26,364 bases of DNA, from IMG/VR virus record IMGVR_UViG_3300045912_000098, positions 1-26,364 of that record; one strand, 5' to 3'. The DNA comes from a virus. The notes beneath the pieces were generated by a model that saw only the letters and a program-made list of their open reading frames with translations, ran no database searches and was not told the origin of the DNA. A program made the translations under genes and the position numbers. This document shows positions 12,274-26,364 of this stretch, one piece after another. The stretch's first letter is position 1; each line of letters begins with the position of its first letter.

Positions 12274-15200
12274 ATGCCGTTTTCCGTCGGCGACGTGATT
12301 ACGCTCAAGATCGTGTCGATCACGCCCGGAGACCAGATCGGGCCGCCGTCGAGCCTCCAGGCGCAGACGCTGGGCGCGGACTCGATCCGCCTGACCTGGA
12401 CGCCAAACCCCGGCGGCGAGCCGACCGGCCAGCGCATCGAGCGCTCAACCGACGGCGGCCAGACGTTCGGCACGCTCGATACCGTCGCCGCCGACGCCGC
12501 GACCCACGACGACGAAGGGCTGGCCGCCTCGACCACCTATCACTATCGGATTCGCACACTCAAGGATACCGAGGTCTCGGAGCCTTCCAACGTCGCGTTC
12601 GCCACGACGGATGCGGGCGAGGCCGAGCCGGAAGGACCGGAAGCCCCGACCGGGTTCACGGCGACGCCCGCCGGCACAACGGAGATCGGGCTCTCCTGGG
12701 ACGCGCCCGATCCCGAGCCGGACAGCTACGAGATCGAGCGGAGCTTGAACGGCCTGTCCGGCTGGACTCAATTCGCCACACCGGCCGGTTCGGCGACCAC
12801 GGCCGGCGACACCGGGCGCGGCCCCGGCACGCGCTACTACTACCGGATTCGCTCCGTGGACGGCGAGATCGTATCGCCGTGGTCCACGGTCGCCAGCGCC
12901 CAGACATTCGCCGAACCCGAGGCTCCACTCGCGCCCGAGAACGTGGTCGCGTGGGCATTCTCCTCCACGGTGATCCGCTTCACGTTCAGTGATACGAACG
13001 CCGGGCAAGCGAACTATCGCGTCGAGCGGAGTGTCAACGGTACAACCTGGACGACCGTGCAAACGCTGATGCCGGGCACGTACCTTTGGGGACAGGCAAG
13101 CGGACTCGCGGCGGGCACGCGCTATTTCTTTCGCTTCACCGCCGTCAATGGCGAACTCGAATCGCCGTCGGTCATCGTCTCCAGAGCAACCGCCGTGGCC
13201 GTCGCCGACGCGCCGACGAACCTCCAGGCGGTCGCGTTCCGGGCCGACGCCATCGCCATCGACTTTGGACGCTCCACAAATACCTTCCAGTACATCGAAC
13301 GGTCGTCTGACAATGGCGAGACCTGGGAACAACGGGCGCGGCTCGTGGGGCTTGTGTCCGAGTTCCTGGACAGCGCGGAACCGAATACGTCCTACCTCTA
13401 TCGTGCGCGGGCGGGCAACGGAACGGGGACGTTCACCGGCTATACGACGCCCGTCGCCGTCACGACTCCGGCGGCGGACCTGCCGCTGTCCGCCGTCGCC
13501 GACCTCCGCATGCGAGCGATCAAAGGCGGACAGGTGGAACTGACCTGGATCAACGACCCACTTCGCAAGGAACGGCGCATCGAGATCCAGCGCTCGCGCG
13601 ACGAAATCGGATGGCTCACGGTCGCGGGCAATCTCTATCCCGGCTCGGCGCGGTTCGTGGATCTCGGGCTCGATGATGACAAATACCATGTCTGGCGGGT
13701 CCGCTACGTCAATGAGTCCGGTCCCGGACCGTGGGCGACCATAAGCGGCAACTCGGCCGCGTTCGCCGGGGAGGGTACGCCGCCCCCAGCCCCCAGCGAC
13801 TTGGAAGCATGGCCATACAGTGACTCGGCCGTGTACCTCTGCTGGCGCTACGGCGACGACACCGAGGACGGGGCGATCGTCGAGATGAACTCCGACGGCG
13901 TCAATGCTTGGGTCGAGGTCGCACGTGTCGGCAAGTGGGTCTGGGATTGCTACGTGACCGGACTGGAGCCGGACGCCGCATATCGTTTTCGCGTCCGCGC
14001 GTTCAACTCCAACGGCTATTCAAGTTGGAGCGACTCGACTAACGCTGCGACCTTTAAGGAGGGCGGCCACTATCAGACGGACCTTGGCATCAGTGTCCCG
14101 CCACGCACGCTGATGACGCCCAAGCACCGCGCGATTCTCCAGCGAATGAAGGCGGACTACGACGCCGCTCCGTCCAATCCGACGACATTCGGCGGACGGC
14201 TCTGGAAGCACATGACGGTCAACTATGCCGACCTGAGCCTGACCGCACCGCGTTTCACCGACTACGGGCTCTGGGGCGCGATCGCCTACCAGGCGACCGG
14301 CAACACAACCTATGCCGCCGGGGCTTATGCCCGTGCCTACGGCCTCTACGTCTCCAAAGACCCGCGCGTCGGCGGCGTTTCGGCCAACGACGTGCGACGG
14401 CTCACGATCGAACTGGCGCTCACCTACGACCTGGCGCAAGCGGGCTGGACCAACGAGCAGCGCGACAATTACAAGGCCGGGCTGAAAGCGTGGGCCGAAT
14501 ACTGCTTCGGGCTGAATTGCGACAACTATCGGGGCGGGTTCCGGCTCAGCGACAGCGATCAGTCGGTCGGCCAGTATTTCGGTCTGGCGCTCATCAATCA
14601 CGTCCTGGACGAGAACGACCCGGCCTTGGGTCTGGGCCTGCTGCAAGCCGGGGGCAGCGCTGGGATGGAGCGAGTCGGCGGACTGATGCCGAGCCTGGAC
14701 GACCGACAGACGGTGGCGAACACCGTGCTGGGCGACTATCCCCGGATCACCGAGGGTGGTGAGTGGATTGAAAGTTCGCAGTACAACGCCAGCACGGTGC
14801 GGTTGGTCACGTCGGGGCTAGAGGCGATGGCACGCGCCCGCGCGCTGCTCGGCGACCACGTCGACTACTTCGACGCGCTCCGCGACGTGTCGCGGCGGCA
14901 CGGCCTGATGGAGTTGGCGCGGTTCTCGCCCGACCTGGCGCAAATCTGGCAATGGGGCGACGACGAGACGGGCCGCACGCCGTCGCTGACGGCGCGCGTG
15001 GCAACGCAGTCCCTCAGCGCGGGTATGGCGCGGGGTAATCCGACGCTCGGGCCGCTTAACCTCGGCTTCGCGTCCGAGATGTGCGACGTGGGCGGCACGG
15101 CGATCATCCAGTTCGCGCAGTCGTACCTGTTGATCGACCCCTACGCGCCGACCGAAGCGCGGACCGCCGCGCCGGCAATCCTCGCCGCGCCGGGCATGGG

Positions 15201-16464
15201 CGCGCTGCTGCACCACGACGGACATGATCCCTCCGACAGCTTCTTCGCCGCGATCTTCATGCCGAATACGCAATGCGACCACAACTCGCGCGGCGTGTGG
15301 GGCGATTTCCAGCTTTACCGCAAGGGCGAATGGGCGCTGACGCACCCGATCTGGTATGGCTCGTTCGCCGTCGAGAACGACGCCTACAACAGCACTCTGT
15401 TGTGCGGCTTCGGTTCGGTCTCACTGACCAACGACCCCAAGGCGGTCCGGCGGATGATCGCCACGGCCGGCGAACCCGGCGTGTACTCCTACATCGCGGG
15501 CGAGACCCACGGCTATCTCAAGAATCTCGACTACTTCCAACGTCCGCCGCAATGCATCTTCGAGAACACACGCAGTCTCGTCTATCTGCCCAGCGCCGAC
15601 AAGAAGTCGGACGCCGTGGTTGTCTTCGATCGCATGCTGGCATCGAACCCGAACTATCTGCCGACCTTCGACGGCTCGGCGGCGGTTGGGGTGACGCGCT
15701 ATGCGACCGGGGCCAACACGGGCGGCGGCGCGGCGAGCGAACAGGCGCGGATCAACTTCAACCCCGTCGCGGGCACGCGGGCGATGGAGCAATGGCTGCT
15801 CCATTGCCGCGAGGAGCCGACGATCACCGGCAACGCGGCCACTTGGACCAGCTATCTCGGCAACAGCGACCTCAAGCACGTGTGCCTGCTGCCGAGCGCG
15901 GCGACGATCCTCAAGGACAATTTGGTCACGCACTGGTCGCCGCCGATCAACTGGAACGAGGCGGGCATCCCCAAGACGGGCGGGCATCCGACCTACGGCC
16001 CCGAGCGGCGTTGGCGAATCACGGTCCACCGCTCCGACGCTCCCTGGCCGGACGACGCCACGCCACGCTTCACGACGTTCCTCAACGTCGTCTTCGCCGC
16101 GGACGCAGACGGCGGGCCGACGTGCAACGCCACGCTGGTCGAGTCCAGCGCGGGCGCGGCCGTGGTCGCGGCGCACGTCACCCGCACCGACCTCGACGAC
16201 CAACTGGTCGCGTTTTCGGCCGCACCCAGCACGCGGAGCGGCACGACGACGACGTTCAACCGCGTGTTGACCAGCGGCTTCACGCTCGCCTGGACGTCCA
16301 CGGGCGACACGGAGGTCTACCTGTTCGATCTGCTGCCTGGCGACGGCTGGACGGTGAACGTGGACGACGGCGGCGCGGACCCGCTGACCGTCTCGGACCA
16401 GGGAGTGGCCCGTATCACCGTGCCTGGGGCCGGAGCGCACACGCTCGTCGTGGGGACCGCCTAA
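12274..16464 (+). CDS. FN3-repeat protein with heparinase II/III-like polysaccharide lyase
   Basis: A 1396-residue protein. About residues 22-595 are six fibronectin type III domains (roughly 22-112, 122-212, 218-305, 312-398, 404-497, 504-594), each with a W or F in strand B (IRLTWTPNP, IGLSWDAPD) and a Y-x-[YF]-R-x-R pattern in strand F (YHYRIRTL, YYYRIRSV, YFFRFTAV). From about 610 an alpha-helical domain (ALTYDLAQAGWTNEQRDNYK, GGEWIESSQYN at 828-838) is followed by a beta-sandwich with DHNSRGVWGDFQLYRKGEW at 1002-1020, very like the start of the heparinase II/III-family beta domain. It probably cleaves an acidic host glycan; FN3 domains act as spacer or glycan binder. Catalytic Tyr/His are not assigned. 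It is unusually large for a phage lyase. Confidence 0.78.
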   Translation: MPFSVGDVITLKIVSITPGDQIGPPSSLQAQTLGADSIRLTWTPNPGGEPTGQRIERSTDGGQTFGTLDTVAADAATHDDEGLAASTTYHYRIRTLKDTEVSEPSNVAFATTDAGEAEPEGPEAPTGFTATPAGTTEIGLSWDAPDPEPDSYEIERSLNGLSGWTQFATPAGSATTAGDTGRGPGTRYYYRIRSVDGEIVSPWSTVASAQTFAEPEAPLAPENVVAWAFSSTVIRFTFSDTNAGQANYRVERSVNGTTWTTVQTLMPGTYLWGQASGLAAGTRYFFRFTAVNGELESPSVIVSRATAVAVADAPTNLQAVAFRADAIAIDFGRSTNTFQYIERSSDNGETWEQRARLVGLVSEFLDSAEPNTSYLYRARAGNGTGTFTGYTTPVAVTTPAADLPLSAVADLRMRAIKGGQVELTWINDPLRKERRIEIQRSRDEIGWLTVAGNLYPGSARFVDLGLDDDKYHVWRVRYVNESGPGPWATISGNSAAFAGEGTPPPAPSDLEAWPYSDSAVYLCWRYGDDTEDGAIVEMNSDGVNAWVEVARVGKWVWDCYVTGLEPDAAYRFRVRAFNSNGYSSWSDSTNAATFKEGGHYQTDLGISVPPRTLMTPKHRAILQRMKADYDAAPSNPTTFGGRLWKHMTVNYADLSLTAPRFTDYGLWGAIAYQATGNTTYAAGAYARAYGLYVSKDPRVGGVSANDVRRLTIELALTYDLAQAGWTNEQRDNYKAGLKAWAEYCFGLNCDNYRGGFRLSDSDQSVGQYFGLALINHVLDENDPALGLGLLQAGGSAGMERVGGLMPSLDDRQTVANTVLGDYPRITEGGEWIESSQYNASTVRLVTSGLEAMARARALLGDHVDYFDALRDVSRRHGLMELARFSPDLAQIWQWGDDETGRTPSLTARVATQSLSAGMARGNPTLGPLNLGFASEMCDVGGTAIIQFAQSYLLIDPYAPTEARTAAPAILAAPGMGALLHHDGHDPSDSFFAAIFMPNTQCDHNSRGVWGDFQLYRKGEWALTHPIWYGSFAVENDAYNSTLLCGFGSVSLTNDPKAVRRMIATAGEPGVYSYIAGETHGYLKNLDYFQRPPQCIFENTRSLVYLPSADKKSDAVVVFDRMLASNPNYLPTFDGSAAVGVTRYATGANTGGGAASEQARINFNPVAGTRAMEQWLLHCREEPTITGNAATWTSYLGNSDLKHVCLLPSAATILKDNLVTHWSPPINWNEAGIPKTGGHPTYGPERRWRITVHRSDAPWPDDATPRFTTFLNVVFAADADGGPTCNATLVESSAGAAVVAAHVTRTDLDDQLVAFSAAPSTRSGTTTTFNRVLTSGFTLAWTSTGDTEVYLFDLLPGDGWTVNVDDGGADPLTVSDQGVARITVPGAGAHTLVVGTA

Positions 16465-20951: not shown

Positions 20952-22049
20952 TTGAACCGCGTCGTCATTCGCACGCAAGTCAACCCCTGGACCGGGTACG
21001 GCCAGATCGGCATTCACCTGGGACGATCCCTGGAGGCGCTGGGGATTCCCGTCGTGTTCGATCCGTTCGGCGTCGATGAGACGTTTTACGGCGTCGATTC
21101 GTGGGTGGCCGAGCGGATCGACCTGGACGGCGCGGACCCCGGCGAGATCGCCGTACAGTTGGCCGGACCCGGCGCGCTCAGCCCGTATCCCCGCGACACG
21201 CTCGCGTTCACCATGTTCGAGTCGGCGGGCGTCACCGCCGACGCCGTGCGCGTCCTCAATCGGATGCGGGGCGTCGTCGTGCCGTGCTCGTGGTGCGCGG
21301 CCGTCCTGTCGGCCGCCGGGATGGTCCGGCCTCTTTTCGTCGCGCCGATGGGCGTGGACGAGACCGAGGGATTCACCTACGCGCCGCCGCCGCAACGGGG
21401 CAACTTCGTGATCGGCGTCGCGGGCCGGATGTCGCACGGCGGTTGCCGCAAGGGCTTGAATGAGGCCATGAGGGCGTTCGCGCTCGCGTTCCCCGCCGAA
21501 ACCGACGTGGAGTTGCGGGTCAAGGTCTGGCCCGACGACATCATGTATCTCGACGTTCCCGACCATCCGCGCATCCACGTCCACCCCCGCCCGCTGCGCC
21601 CCCGCGAAATGGCTCACTGGCTCAAGAATTTACATGTGTATCTCTGCCCGTCCAAGGGCGAGGGCTGGGGCCTCATCACGCATCAGGCGATGGCGGTGGG
21701 CCGTCCCGTGATCGCCGCGCGCTGGAGCGGCACCGCCGAGTTCTGGGACGACCGCGCCGGGTACGAACTGGAATACGACCTCGAAGCCGCTCAGGACTTC
21801 TACGGCGAGTGCGGCGTCTGGGCCGCGCCCCGGCTCGATTCCATGATTCGCGTGCTGAGACACGCCTACGCGCGCCGGGCCGAACTGCCCGAAAAAGGGC
21901 TGAACGCCCACGCTCTGGCGCTCCGCTGGACGTGGGACCGCACGGCCCGCGCCCTGGTCGGCGCGCTCAAGGCGTGCGGATGGACGCCGAACGACCGAAC
22001 GAACTGTCACCGCGTTTTAGGGAGCTACGCCAATGGCGTCCTCGTTTGA
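20952..22049 (+). CDS. GT4-like glycosyltransferase in the tail operon
   Basis: A 365-residue protein starting at TTG 20952; AGGAG (20938-20942) lies nine bases upstream and overlaps the preceding stop, which fixes the start. It has the GT-B layout: N-terminal Gly loop (NPWTGYGQIGIHLG), a switch to the second domain at FVIGVAGRMSHGG (Arg 159, Lys 167) and the nucleotide-sugar segment SKGEGWGLITHQAMAVGRP. The usual E-x7-E pair here is Glu 237 and Gln 245, so the second Glu is replaced. Such enzymes transfer a sugar from a nucleotide-sugar. Targets could be host surface glycan, virion proteins or phage DNA. It overlaps the tail-tube gene by 17 bases, so it is coupled with structural genes. Confidence 0.8.
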   Translation: MNRVVIRTQVNPWTGYGQIGIHLGRSLEALGIPVVFDPFGVDETFYGVDSWVAERIDLDGADPGEIAVQLAGPGALSPYPRDTLAFTMFESAGVTADAVRVLNRMRGVVVPCSWCAAVLSAAGMVRPLFVAPMGVDETEGFTYAPPPQRGNFVIGVAGRMSHGGCRKGLNEAMRAFALAFPAETDVELRVKVWPDDIMYLDVPDHPRIHVHPRPLRPREMAHWLKNLHVYLCPSKGEGWGLITHQAMAVGRPVIAARWSGTAEFWDDRAGYELEYDLEAAQDFYGECGVWAAPRLDSMIRVLRHAYARRAELPEKGLNAHALALRWTWDRTARALVGALKACGWTPNDRTNCHRVLGSYANGVLV

Positions 22050-23028
22050 GTACCTTGTGTTGGTCAAGGAATCCGCCTACGGCGAGACGATGGCCAATCC
22101 CGTGTGGGGGACCGACGCCATCGTGGTACGCCTAGCGGGACCGAACCGCTTCACGCCCCGCCCCGCGCGGCCGCTGGTGCAAATCCCCTACGGCGGCGGC
22201 GTCAACATCCGCCACTACACGACCTCGGGCAAGTTCGCGATCACGGGATCGCTGACGACCGAACTGTACGCGAGCCAAGCGGCGTTCCTGCTCAACTGGT
22301 GCGCCACGCGGATCAACACCGGGCGCACCACGCCCTGGACGACCACCGACGCGGGCGGCGTGATGCCCGTAGGCGACCTCGCGTCCGTCACCTGCTACCA
22401 CGCCATCCGCCGCAACGACGGCACCACCAAGCGGCGCAAGTACGTCGGCACCAAGGTCCATTCATGGCGGCTGGAGGGCAACGACACCGACCAGCAATTC
22501 ATGCTGAGCCTTGAGCTTCAATCCAAGAAAATGCACGGCAACATCATCGACGCCTCGAACGACCCCGATGCAGTCGAGTTCCCCGAACCGCTCGATTCCG
22601 ACTACCCGACCGACCTGTACCTGTTCACCCACACGGTCGGCGGCTTCACGCTCGATTCGGTGCGCTCGATCTATTCCAGCATGTCCATCAATGTGCAAAA
22701 TTCGATGGATGCGCGGTTCTTCGAGGCCCCGTTCATCTACCTGGACCAGTTCCGGGGCCGAGCGGCCACCATGTCGATCAAGGGTTTGTACAAGGCCAAC
22801 CCCGACGACCGCGCGGCGTTCGAGGCGATCGACACCCACGAGGCGGAAGTCGTGATCGACAACGGCGACATCACGACCACGATCCAGTTCAACGGCAACA
22901 ACGTGCTCGATCAGATCACGGACGATCTGCCTCTCGACCGCGTGTTTGAGCAGGAGTTTCTGCTGGCCACGCAATGGGACAACGCGGTCCACGAAGACCT
23001 GTCGGTCAGCGTGACGGAAAATCCCTGA
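22033..23028 (+). CDS. Putative major tail tube protein
   Basis: A 331-residue protein starting MASSFEYLVLVKESAYGETM. It is beta-rich, with paired halves: LVQIPYGGGVNIRHYTTSGK and SLTTELYASQAAFLLNWCAT in the first, FTLDSVRSIYSSMSINVQNS and AATMSIKGLYKANPDDRAAF in the second. Two repeated beta-sandwich halves with a helix between them are typical of tail tube proteins of siphoviruses, forming stacked hexameric rings. The place between the terminator-like gene and the tape-measure module fits well. Sheath-like features are absent. ATG 22033 lies inside the glycosyltransferase gene; the overlap is 17 bases. Confidence 0.72.
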   Translation: MASSFEYLVLVKESAYGETMANPVWGTDAIVVRLAGPNRFTPRPARPLVQIPYGGGVNIRHYTTSGKFAITGSLTTELYASQAAFLLNWCATRINTGRTTPWTTTDAGGVMPVGDLASVTCYHAIRRNDGTTKRRKYVGTKVHSWRLEGNDTDQQFMLSLELQSKKMHGNIIDASNDPDAVEFPEPLDSDYPTDLYLFTHTVGGFTLDSVRSIYSSMSINVQNSMDARFFEAPFIYLDQFRGRAATMSIKGLYKANPDDRAAFEAIDTHEAEVVIDNGDITTTIQFNGNNVLDQITDDLPLDRVFEQEFLLATQWDNAVHEDLSVSVTENP

Positions 23029-23714
23029 TGGCGCGTGTCAGCGCCGCATTCCGCGTGCCCTATCATCGCGTCGAGCCGATCGACCCGTTCTGGGGGCTGG
23101 CCGACGAGCGGACGCGCGCCGCGTTCCGCAAGGAAGTGGTCAAGGCCGTGCTCGCCGAGAAGGACAGGGATTTGGCGGCGGGCCTGGACCGGCGCGGCCG
23201 GCGCATGAAGCGCATCAGCGAATGGACGCGCTTACATCGTCGCTCCGAGATGGGCAAGGCCGACCCCGACGCGCCGCCGCTGACGCCCGCGCACGGACTG
23301 TCGCGCACCCGCGCCTATCTTGACGGCCGCGCCCTGGCCGATGAAGCTGAGTTCTTCTGGCGCGGCGGCTGGGGCCGGATTCTCCACTTTCACCGCATCG
23401 GTGCCGGCCGGCTCCCCGTCCGCGACGTGATCGGAGTCTCGGACATGCTGCTTGCCCGCGTCCAAAATCGCATGGAAGCCTGGTGGAAAGCGTATCGCGC
23501 GGGCGTCGTGGAGCAGGCGGAGCGGGACGCGGAACGGTTCCGCGTGGTCGTGCCGTCGCGAGCCCCGGCGCGCCGCGAGCCGCCGCGATCACGGCGCAAG
23601 GCCGTGGCGACCCCCGTCACGCCCAAGGTGATTACCTATCACACGCGCCGCGAGCCGGAAGCCCCCGCCGACTTCTCGACGGGCTGGCGTCAATTCCGCG
23701 TGCCGGGGAGATAG
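23028..23714 (+). CDS. Virion-morphogenesis-like tail protein
   Basis: A 228-residue basic protein from ATG 23028, sharing its A with the tail-tube stop; the frame extends upstream inside that gene but as a shadow. The middle part, LSRTRAYLDGRALADEAEFF followed by GWGRILHFHRIGAG and RLPVRDVIGVSD, resembles phage virion-morphogenesis (gpG-type) proteins, where a His-rich beta region leads to a PxR-like end. After about residue 165 an Arg/Pro-rich tail with low complexity follows, ending FSTGWRQFRVPGR. It probably helps tail completion. The family match is by eye only. Confidence 0.55.
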   Translation: MARVSAAFRVPYHRVEPIDPFWGLADERTRAAFRKEVVKAVLAEKDRDLAAGLDRRGRRMKRISEWTRLHRRSEMGKADPDAPPLTPAHGLSRTRAYLDGRALADEAEFFWRGGWGRILHFHRIGAGRLPVRDVIGVSDMLLARVQNRMEAWWKAYRAGVVEQAERDAERFRVVVPSRAPARREPPRSRRKAVATPVTPKVITYHTRREPEAPADFSTGWRQFRVPGR

Positions 23715-23719
23715 AGGCC

Positions 23720-24277
23720 GTGGCGCAGTTCATCGACACCGGATTGGTCAACCTCGAGCGCAAGCTCGACCGCATGGCGAATCCCGATTTCGCCCCGCTG
23801 ATGGAGCAATGGGAAAAGGTGATCGTCGAGGATAACCGGCAGGGCGTCCTCTCGGGACTCGACAAGGATGGACGCCCGCTCGCGCCCGTGACCTATCGAG
23901 GCGGTATTGCCAAGCCGACGCGACGACGGCGCAACGCCCGGTTCGGCACCACGGCCGGCACGTTCAAGCCGGGCTCCGGCGGCAACCTTTCGCCGTCCGA
24001 GTATCGCACGTTGACCGGGCCGCCGCTGGCCCCGAGGCGCGAGGAGTCGCGCGTCATCACCAATCTCGTCACGCGCAGCGGTCGCACGGGAACGACCTGG
24101 CACGCCGAAGCCGCGTGGGCCGATGTCGTCAGTGAGGATGGAATCCCGTTCCTCGACGCCCACTTCGAGGGGCGCAAGCAGAAGCGACGCGACCTGCGCG
24201 GCGTGCGACCCTGGGGGATCGCCGAAGCGCGGCGACTGCTTCGCGCCTATGTCCGTCGGCTATGGCGCAGCCTCTGA
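23720..24277 (+). CDS. Second tail-assembly protein, gpG-like
   Basis: A 185-residue protein from GTG 23720 with GGGGAG about 10 bases upstream; the frame is open further upstream within the previous gene. The N-terminus has LVNLERKLDRMANPDFAPLM and the segment RQGVLSGLDKDGRPLAPVTY, a frequent pattern of phage virion-morphogenesis and head-tail proteins. The C-terminal half contains PFLDAHFEGRKQKRRDLRGV and a final helix (EARRLLRAYVRRLWRSL). It may act with the previous protein in completing the tail. A minus-strand gene overlaps its last 18 bases. Confidence 0.55.
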   Translation: MAQFIDTGLVNLERKLDRMANPDFAPLMEQWEKVIVEDNRQGVLSGLDKDGRPLAPVTYRGGIAKPTRRRRNARFGTTAGTFKPGSGGNLSPSEYRTLTGPPLAPRREESRVITNLVTRSGRTGTTWHAEAAWADVVSEDGIPFLDAHFEGRKQKRRDLRGVRPWGIAEARRLLRAYVRRLWRSL

Positions 24278-24676
24278 ACGGCCGGGCATCAACCGCAACT
24301 CGTGACGGCAGGCATACCACAGTTGGTCTCTCCGGTCGCCTTCGAGGATGCGTAGTTGGACCGGGCGCAAGGGATCGTCCGCGCCGCCGTCATCGGCCGT
24401 GACCAGTGCCCTCGTTCCCGCCGGAACGCGACAGACGTTCTCGCGGTCGTCGAACGGTCGCAATTGGATCGTGTGCGCGGTCTCGCTCCCTTCCTCAAGT
24501 TCGGCCTGAATGTACGGCTTGTACCAGTCGGCGATCACCAGAACGACGGCGGAGCCGGGGGCAAGACGGTCCACGTCGGGACGATCCGCCACGGCGGGCG
24601 GATCAACCGCCGGTGAACCGCATCCGTAAGCCGAAAGGCATGACGCAATGAGCACGGGCGGCAACGACGAACGCAT
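24260..24676 (-). CDS. Reverse-strand lipoprotein-like protein, moron candidate
   Basis: A 138-residue protein read on the minus strand, the only gene in this direction. ATG 24674-24676 is preceded by GAGGA at 24685-24689 (minus strand) with eight bases spacing, a good ribosome binding site. The N-terminus MRSSLPPVLIASCLSAYGCG is short and hydrophobic with two possible lipobox Cys (IASC and AYGC). The mature part (ADWYKPYIQAELEEGSETAH, CRVPAGTRALVTADD, VQLRILEGDRRDQLWYACRH) looks like a small SH3-like beta domain. Normal composition (W, Y, K) separates it from the Arg/Ser-rich shadows on the opposite strand. Opposite orientation and position fill the gap between tail genes. A prophage-expressed moron such as a superinfection-exclusion lipoprotein is possible. 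Confidence 0.6.
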   Translation of the reverse strand: MRSSLPPVLIASCLSAYGCGSPAVDPPAVADRPDVDRLAPGSAVVLVIADWYKPYIQAELEEGSETAHTIQLRPFDDRENVCRVPAGTRALVTADDGGADDPLRPVQLRILEGDRRDQLWYACRHELRLMPGRSEAAP

Positions 24677-26364
24677 TCGGTTAGTCCTCGATACGGTCGG
24701 GAAGCAGGGTCTCGACGACCTCAAACGCGCGGCCGCCGACGCCAAGGATCAGTTTAGCGCGTTCCGCGTCGAGATTGAACGGACGACCTCCGCCAAGCGG
24801 CGAGTCTTCGACCTCGGGGCGCGGATGAAGACGGCCGAAGCGGAGATGTTCGCCGCTCGGATCGCCCAGCAACGCCAGGAGCAGGAGGAAGCCGAGCGAA
24901 CCGAGGCGATCATGGATCGCGCGATGCGCCGAACCGTCTCGGCGCACAACGCCAGCCAGAAAGCCGTAGCGCAATCCGCCGAAGCCGACCGCGATTCCGC
25001 CAAGGCGAAGATGGGGGCCGCGCAAGCCGCCCTGGAACTGTCCCGTGGCCTGGAAGACCTCGCCACGGGCGGCTTCATGGGGATTCTGAACAATATTCCC
25101 CGCATGGTCGAAGGCGTCGGCCGCGCCATCGGCCTGACGCTCGCCAAGGTGATGGCGCTCTCGACCGCCGTCACCATGACCGCGACGGCTGTTTATGTCT
25201 TGTTTCGCAATTGGGATCAGGTCACGGAGGTCTTCGGCAAGTCCGGCGTCCCCACGGAAGACCTGATCGGCAAGATGGGACGCCTGGAGAAAGCCATCAA
25301 GGGGAACAAGGACGAACTCGACAAGCTCACGCAATCGACCTCGATGTCGGTCACGGAAATCGAGCGCTACAACAAGCTCACCGAGGAAACCGCGCGGCTG
25401 GAAAAGCTCAAGGCCGACGAGATGGAGCGGCAGCAGCGCATCAAGCGCGTCGATGAAGCGAAGGACCCCAAGGTCGTCGGCGAAATGGCGTCCGCCAAGG
25501 AAGTGATGCAGACGCTGATGAGCGATAAGGACGCCATTGTCCGCGCGATCCAGGATTCCATGCCGCAGGCCGCGATCCAGGCCGTCAACGCGCAGTTGAA
25601 TCAGGTCATCCGCCAGCGGCACGAGGCGTTCACCAGGGGCGACCTCGCCGAACGCAAGCGCATCCCCGAATACGATCAGGAGATCGCCCGATTGGCTTCG
25701 TTGCGGAATCAGAAGATCGCGCAACGTCAAGGCGACGCCAAGGTGTTGTTCGACAAGGCGATGGAGGGGGACGCCGCCGCGATCGCCCAACTCGCCGGAG
25801 TCCCCGGCCTGACGCCCGGCCAGCGCTCGGTTATCGACGTCGCGAGCCCAGAATACCAGGCCGCGCAGCGCCGCGCCAAGCATGAGAACGTCGAGTTCTT
25901 CCGGCAAAGAGACGTCATGACGGACGAACTGAACAGGCAGGGCGCGGAGTTCGAGGCGGCCGGCAAGATCGACAACGAACTCCAGGAAGCCGCCGCGAAA
26001 CTTATCAACGACACGACGCAGCACATGGGCAAGGTCTGGGAAGACGAAGTGAAAGCCCGCGTCGAGATCGGCAAGGAAGCGCGCGACGCGCAGCGCAAAC
26101 ATCAGGATTGGCGCGACAAGAAGACCGAGGAACAAACCCGCATGGATGTTGATTTACTGAAGAAAGGGACGATCGACGAGGAGGCAGCCGCCGCGCTGGC
26201 TCAGGCTCGCGCCATGGGGGGATGGCGCGACGAGATGGGCAACCTCGTCCGTGCGACGCCCCAGCAGCAGAACCGGGCGCTCGTGGAAGACCTGCACCGC
26301 AACCTGGCCGCGACCAATCCGGCGTTCCAGGGGGCGCGTGGGCGCAACGCCGCCGTCCAGATCG
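24648..26364 (+). CDS. Tape measure protein, N-terminal part (runs off the window)
   Basis: Open from ATG 24648 to the window end (about 572 residues) with no stop. It begins MSTGGNDERIRLVLDTVGKQ, then long charged helices (MKTAEAEMFAARIAQQRQEQ, LTEETARLEKLKADEMERQQ and others) typical of tape measures that fix tail length. A hydrophobic segment at about residues 145-185 (GLTLAKVMALSTAVTMTATA) fits the membrane-inserting part used during DNA ejection. Position after the tail tube and assembly genes supports it. The total length, and hence predicted tail length, cannot be known because the gene is cut. The first 29 bases overlap the reverse-strand gene. Confidence 0.8.
   Translation, partial: MSTGGNDERIRLVLDTVGKQGLDDLKRAAADAKDQFSAFRVEIERTTSAKRRVFDLGARMKTAEAEMFAARIAQQRQEQEEAERTEAIMDRAMRRTVSAHNASQKAVAQSAEADRDSAKAKMGAAQAALELSRGLEDLATGGFMGILNNIPRMVEGVGRAIGLTLAKVMALSTAVTMTATAVYVLFRNWDQVTEVFGKSGVPTEDLIGKMGRLEKAIKGNKDELDKLTQSTSMSVTEIERYNKLTEETARLEKLKADEMERQQRIKRVDEAKDPKVVGEMASAKEVMQTLMSDKDAIVRAIQDSMPQAAIQAVNAQLNQVIRQRHEAFTRGDLAERKRIPEYDQEIARLASLRNQKIAQRQGDAKVLFDKAMEGDAAAIAQLAGVPGLTPGQRSVIDVASPEYQAAQRRAKHENVEFFRQRDVMTDELNRQGAEFEAAGKIDNELQEAAAKLINDTTQHMGKVWEDEVKARVEIGKEARDAQRKHQDWRDKKTEEQTRMDVDLLKKGTIDEEAAAALAQARAMGGWRDEMGNLVRATPQQQNRALVEDLHRNLAATNPAFQGARGRNAAVQI
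24685..24689 (-). promoter_or_regulatory. Ribosome binding site of the reverse-strand gene
   Basis: GAGGA on the minus strand, eight bases before the ATG of the lipoprotein-like gene. It lies inside the first codons of the tape measure gene, so it may be chance, but the spacing is ideal and it decides the start. Confidence 0.5.

What the first reader, a model, noticed from the sequence alone, without database searches (positions are those of the whole stretch)
24260..24676. Only reverse-strand gene: a lipoprotein-like protein just before the tape measure
Seen: minus-strand frame of 138 residues exactly filling the gap between two late genes, with GAGGA eight bases before its ATG, a short hydrophobic N-terminus with Cys, and an SH3-like beta body. 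It overlaps both neighbours by a few bases. Known: prophages carry morons, and some phage lipoproteins block DNA entry of related phages, with the tape measure as a target in at least one known case. Inference: a superinfection-exclusion lipoprotein placed beside the tape measure gene.
Basis: partly seen in the sequence, partly recalled or inferred. Interest (0 to 1): 0.66.

Follow-up and report, generated by a model that had tools for sequence, protein, structure and literature searches.

The report
Antisense lipoprotein gene beside tape-measure gene
A temperate virus of soil Planctomycetota bacteria carries, backwards between two tail genes, a small lipoprotein gene of host type, and several relatives carry other backwards membrane-protein genes around the same tail genes, which suggests a recurrent docking place for genes that change the envelope of the infected cell, perhaps to shut out rival viruses.

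Summary
The reverse-strand frame (24676 to 24260, 138 aa) fills a 370-bp insert between a minor tail gene (stop 24277) and the tape-measure-like gene (ATG 24648). Length and codon usage do not prove it is a gene; homology does. An HMM of eight Isosphaeraceae (Planctomycetota) proteins, built without it, ranks it first of 12,283 sequences (38.9 bits, E 5e-10; best decoy 11.3). Those relatives are small chromosomal proteins with a lipobox or membrane helix plus a common body. Cys19, not Cys13, fits the lipobox rule. In 24 of 28 phage lineages the tape measure follows the previous tail gene within about 75 bp, so the gene is a host-type moron, in a temperate phage. The setting recurs: the other three inserts before the tape measure (L098, L103, L108), and junctions in L104 and L116, also hold reverse-strand membrane-protein genes, mostly of one two-helix family. 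Superinfection exclusion is plausible by analogy with Ltp and HK97 gp15 but untested; antisense placement could silence the gene during late transcription, as in the Tha/Ith noncontiguous operon of S. aureus prophages.

The parts
24260..24676 (-). lipoprotein gene P0001, 138 aa
   Evidence: open frame; first of 12,283 sequences with an HMM of eight Isosphaeraceae proteins that excludes it, E 5e-10
24623..24676 (-). signal-peptide codons 1-18 (MRSSLPPVLIASCLSAYG); the first 29 nt are antisense to the start of the tape-measure gene
   Evidence: sequence; lipobox rule
24620..24622 (-). codon of Cys19, the likely lipidated residue
   Evidence: lipobox rule met at Cys19 and not within range at Cys13; aligned with the LVVAGC lipobox of L139
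24293..24580 (-). residues 33-128, body shared with the Isosphaeraceae proteins
   Evidence: HMM alignment, residues 28-128; alignment A8
24685..24689 (-). GAGGA, possible ribosome-binding site, 8 nt before the ATG
   Evidence: sequence
24278..24647 (.). 370-bp insert, absent at the matching junction of 24 of 28 lineages
   Evidence: junction lengths in relatives
23720..24277 (+). upstream minor tail gene P3 (185 aa, GTG start)
   Evidence: homologues in the related phages, up to about 50% identity, conserved to the C-terminus
24648..26363 (+). tape-measure-like gene, runs off the record
   Evidence: place after tube and P3, alignable start and length in relatives; weak tape-measure PHROG hits for relatives only
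22033..23028 (+). tail tube protein gene
   Evidence: Pfam Phage_tube_2, E 6e-9

Best explanation
The frame is a real gene for a small, exported, lipid-anchored protein of a family encoded in chromosomes of Isosphaeraceae. A temperate phage of such a host carries it as a moron, reversed between a minor tail gene and the tape-measure gene. Inferred: it is transcribed from its own promoter while the prophage is silent, the product crosses the inner membrane, is lipidated on Cys19, and changes the envelope of the lysogen, most likely by hindering entry of related phages (superinfection exclusion). Inferred: when the late operon is transcribed, the sense transcript runs over the whole gene and shuts it off, so the phage does not hinder its own progeny (a noncontiguous operon). 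Shown here: coding by homology, lipobox, insertion, temperate carrier, recurrence of similar genes at neighbouring junctions. Step confidences: coding 0.93; lipoprotein 0.8; host-type moron 0.9; expression in lysogeny 0.6; superinfection exclusion 0.35.
For: Coding: host-only HMM finds P0001 first of 12,283 sequences, 38.9 bits, E 5e-10; 31.4 bits without the two seed proteins; best of 20,000 shuffles about 8 bits. Lipoprotein: Cys19 fits the lipobox rule; host members L139, L153, L155 have clear lipoboxes. Moron: no insert in 24 of 28 lineages; homologues in host chromosomes away from terminase, tube or P3 homologues. Temperate: integrase in the longer contig of the same virus. Setting: reverse-strand anchored-protein genes at tube/tape-measure junctions also in L098, L103, L104, L108 and L116. 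Analogy: Ltp and HK97 gp15 exclusion is overcome by changes in tape measure or tube (PMC4737114, PMC10883804); antisense control of a prophage defence in 80alpha (PMC11087260).
Against: No expression data. No sigma-70-like promoter or terminator near the gene, though host promoters may differ. Codon usage unlike the phage's structural genes. Weak hydrophobic stretch with two prolines. No similarity to any known exclusion or defence protein. Host relatives have no known function, so a role in exclusion rests on analogy and position. Six of the eight host members were found with a profile that included P0001, so the E-value is somewhat flattered.
Confidence: 0.42

Rival explanations
1. A host-derived envelope lipoprotein moron that benefits the lysogen in some way unrelated to phage entry (surface properties, stress), the tail junction being only a tolerated insertion site.
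For: Relatives are ordinary chromosomal genes of the host family without phage genes nearby; no link to any defence family.
Against: Unrelated anchored proteins recur around the same tail genes, which a neutral site explains less easily, though only anchored genes may be tolerated there for other reasons.
Confidence: 0.35
2. A small product or antisense RNA whose role is to tune late expression of the tape measure rather than to act in the envelope.
For: The 5' end of the reverse gene is complementary to the first 29 nt of the tape-measure gene, and it lies wholly within the late region.
Against: Most relatives do without the insert; the protein body and the lipobox are kept; other phages hold unrelated proteins in the same position.
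Confidence: 0.08
3. A lysis or virion component, such as an outer-membrane spanin-like lipoprotein, or for the two-helix proteins of relatives a holin.
For: Small anchored proteins in a tailed phage; spanins include small lipoproteins (general knowledge, not tested here).
Against: Reverse strand, so not in the late operon; absent from most relatives; relatives are host chromosomal genes.
Confidence: 0.05
4. Not a gene: an open frame by chance in GC-rich DNA, the insert being non-coding.
For: 57% of shuffles of the insert keep some frame open; codon usage is close to that of shadow frames.
Against: Profile match E 5e-10 over nearly the whole body, with a colinear anchor and C-terminus.
Confidence: 0.05

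Closest known systems
Isosphaeraceae chromosomal anchored small proteins (alignment A8, no named family)
   Same: N-terminal lipobox or helix plus a body with GTR..V..D..DD..R.V.V...G......R..LR; 105-146 aa
   Different: The others found are chromosomal; P0001 is the only phage copy found
Ltp, superinfection-exclusion lipoprotein of Streptococcus phage TP-J34
   Same: Small lipoprotein of a temperate long-tailed phage (142 aa); its target is the tape measure (PMC3952083, PMC4737114)
   Different: No sequence match found; ltp lies in the lysogeny module, not in the tail genes; host is Gram-positive; activity of P0001 untested
HK97 gp15, membrane exclusion protein
   Same: Moron-encoded membrane protein of a temperate long-tailed phage; swapping tube and tape measure escapes it (PMC10883804, PMC4737114)
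   Different: No similarity found; a predicted inner-membrane protein rather than a lipoprotein; activity of P0001 untested
Tha/Ith noncontiguous operon of S. aureus prophage 80alpha
   Same: A gene nested antisense in an operon of a prophage, a layout that couples a defence to the lysis-lysogeny switch (PMC11087260)
   Different: There the antisense gene is the inhibitor in the lysogeny region; here the presumed effector itself is antisense, in the late tail genes, and no transcript is known

Membership tests
Isosphaeraceae anchored small-protein family (A8) | Profile match of the body | tested here: met
   38.9 bits, E 5e-10, host-only HMM; members found each other at 37-57 bits when left out in turn
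Isosphaeraceae anchored small-protein family (A8) | N-terminal lipobox or membrane helix | tested here: met
   Cys19 lipobox
Bacterial lipoprotein | Lipobox rule (PROSITE PS00013 as remembered): pattern, Cys at 15-35, K/R in the first seven residues | tested here: met
   Cys19, Arg2; 2 of 780 reverse-strand ATG frames pass
Bacterial lipoprotein | Lipidation and membrane location | not testable with these tools
   Needs an experiment
Moron | Inserted gene absent from relatives that keep the flanking genes | tested here: met
   24 of 28 lineages lack an insert there
Moron | Own promoter and terminator | tested here: inconclusive
   None found by sigma-70 and terminator consensus; host signals may differ
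Moron | Expressed from the prophage | not testable with these tools
   Needs strand-specific RNA
Ltp-type superinfection-exclusion lipoprotein | Sequence relationship to Ltp | tested here: not met
   No Pfam or PHROG family matched
Ltp-type superinfection-exclusion lipoprotein | Blocks DNA entry through the tape measure | not testable with these tools
   Needs infection assays and escape mutants
Noncontiguous operon | Gene nested antisense within an operon | tested here: met
   Between two + strand tail genes, overlapping both; operon inferred from spacing
Noncontiguous operon | Reciprocal transcription of the two strands | not testable with these tools
   Needs strand-specific RNA before and after induction

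The most novel reading that the evidence does not exclude
Temperate phages of Planctomycetota have a recurrent insertion site around their tube/tape-measure genes where host-type membrane-protein genes are placed antisense, beside the genes of the proteins they block, so that late transcription switches exclusion off: an exchangeable set of exclusion genes with built-in self-protection.
Probability: 0.25. Interest if true: 0.78.

Novelty: new variant of a known kind. Interest (0 to 1): 0.6.

Why it matters
Paper searches for phages of Planctomycetota and Isosphaeraceae listed no title on this phage group. If the recurring antisense membrane-protein genes are exclusion factors, their position points to target and control at once: the neighbouring tube/tape-measure proteins, and silencing by late transcription. 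Small genes at such junctions are easily missed by codon-based gene finders (this one was), so the pattern could be searched for in other phage groups.

Tried and rejected
Single-protein scans of IMG/VR with P0001, tape measure, P3 and tube, and tblastn of them in phage records, found nothing useful. A scan of bacterial genomes with P0001 alone found nothing. Codon usage as proof of coding: rejected. Cys13 as the lipid site: rejected, too close to the start. Flanking direct repeats as an insertion scar: none found. Most other hits (L138, L140, L142-L147): judged chance. Long reverse frames over the tape measure and terminase (484 and 590 aa): taken as shadow frames. L092 8452-8877 and L114 9491-9931 (reverse, after the tape measure, signal-like N-terminus) are kept as candidates only.

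Full report
The observation. The window is an IMG/VR virus record of 26,364 bases. Terminase (541-1962), portal, scaffold-like and major head genes are followed by tail genes, all on the + strand. The frame complement(24260..24676) is as described: ATG start, 138 aa, GAGGA 8 nt before it, 18 nt overlap with the upstream gene and 29 nt with the tape-measure-like gene. That downstream gene is called tape measure from its place, its length and its alignable start (MSTGGNDERIRLVLD against MRDDLNEDEQLRLLFRAG); direct family evidence is weak and comes only from relatives.

Is it a gene? Length proves nothing: 57% of shuffled inserts keep some frame open. Codon usage is close to that of shadow frames. 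No database family matches it. The answer came from the host. Terminase relatives led to two phages with homologous tails, these to the neighbouring P3 family, and a P3 scan of bacterial genomes to a prophage in an Isosphaeraceae assembly (L108). Searching 45 Isosphaeraceae genomes with P0001 gave two colinear candidates (L139, L141), and a profile of the three found more, down to E 2e-10 for a new protein (L157). An HMM of the eight host proteins alone puts P0001 first of 12,283 sequences with 38.9 bits (E 5e-10), against 11.3 bits for the best decoy and about 8 for the best of 20,000 shuffles; leaving out both seeds still gives 31.4 bits. Some circularity remains, since six host members were found with a profile that held P0001, but members recognise each other at 37-57 bits when left out in turn. 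A sample of 392 genomes across the phylum gave only marginal hits, so the family looks largely confined to Isosphaeraceae.

What kind of protein. Three host members have lipoboxes (LVVAGC, VLLAGC, LSAVAC) and the other five a membrane helix, followed by a body ending in GTR..V..D...DD..R.V.V....G......R..LR. In P0001 the lipobox rule is met at Cys19, which aligns with a host lipobox, and Cys13 lies too near the start. Only 2 of 780 reverse-strand ATG frames in the phage set pass this rule. The fold is unproved.

How it got there. I counted 28 distinct lineages with a P3 gene, window included. In 24 the last tail gene before the tape measure ends within about 75 bp of its start; only the window (370 bp), L098 (334 bp), L103 (827 bp) and L108 (450 bp, tube to tape measure) have an insert. 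The host surroundings I fetched for six homologues hold no terminase, tube or P3 homologue. A longer contig of the same virus (L002, 99.98% identical over 9.3 kb) carries a tyrosine integrase and a sigma factor, so the phage is temperate.

The recurrence. Each of the four inserts holds reverse-strand genes for anchored proteins: the window's lipoprotein; two-helix proteins in L098 and, twice, in L103; a zinc-ribbon protein with a C-terminal helix in L108. The two-helix family is also on the reverse strand just after the tape measure in L104 and between tube and P4 in L116, and an HMM of it finds no + strand copy among 20,718 six-frame fragments. It has relatives in 12 of 45 Isosphaeraceae genomes. 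The copies in L098 and L103 are 49% identical over 65 residues. Carriers lie scattered among non-carriers on the P3 tree, though the tree does not rule out fewer gains with losses. Typically the reverse gene starts within about 100 bp of the next tail gene's start and ends near or inside the previous gene. The sample is small and the junctions were examined because of this finding, so a formal test of the insertion site is still owed.

Mechanism. A gene antisense in the late operon is not made from the late transcript; the natural time for it is lysogeny. Two known exclusion proteins of long-tailed phages act at DNA entry and are overcome by changes in tape measure or tube: the lipoprotein Ltp and the membrane protein HK97 gp15 (PMC4737114, PMC10883804). 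In S. aureus prophage 80alpha an antisense arrangement (noncontiguous operon) couples the Tha defence to the life cycle so that it is off after induction (PMC11087260). Put together, an exclusion lipoprotein silenced by late transcription is the most economical reading, but every step after 'exported lipoprotein moron in a temperate phage' is inference. A lysogenic-conversion role unrelated to phage entry is almost as likely.

Verdict. A real gene, ordinary in kind (a moron), unusual in setting: reverse strand, tail junction, host-type lipoprotein, and a recurring pattern in related phages. New variant of a known kind.

Noticed in passing
window 20952-22049: Glycosyltransferase gene (PHROG 2170, E 1e-19) on the + strand just before the tail tube gene: perhaps another moron, altering surface sugars.
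   Followed up: no
L098 8476-8922, L103 8651-9022 and 9068-9343, L104 9967-10230, L116 4567-4845 (all reverse strand): Two-helix membrane-protein family at tube/tape-measure junctions of four phages, with relatives in 12 of 45 Isosphaeraceae genomes; no Pfam or PADLOC family.
   Followed up: partly
L108 12180-12488 (reverse strand): Zinc-ribbon protein with a C-terminal membrane helix between tube and tape measure of an Isosphaeraceae prophage.
   Followed up: partly
L114 9491-9931 and L092 8452-8877 (reverse strand): Frames with a signal-like N-terminus just after the tape measure; possibly further cases of the same pattern.
   Followed up: partly
window 23028-23714; L092 4856-6259; L093 3894-5177: The tail gene after the tube has a metallopeptidase-like C-terminal part (HEVGHGF, HTIEHELAHREH) in relatives that is missing in the window.
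   Followed up: no
L002 5333-6010: Phage-encoded RNA polymerase sigma factor (PHROG 351, E 6e-17) upstream of the terminase, a candidate switch for late transcription.
   Followed up: no
window 12274-16464: 1396-aa fibre-like protein with several fibronectin type III domains.
   Followed up: no
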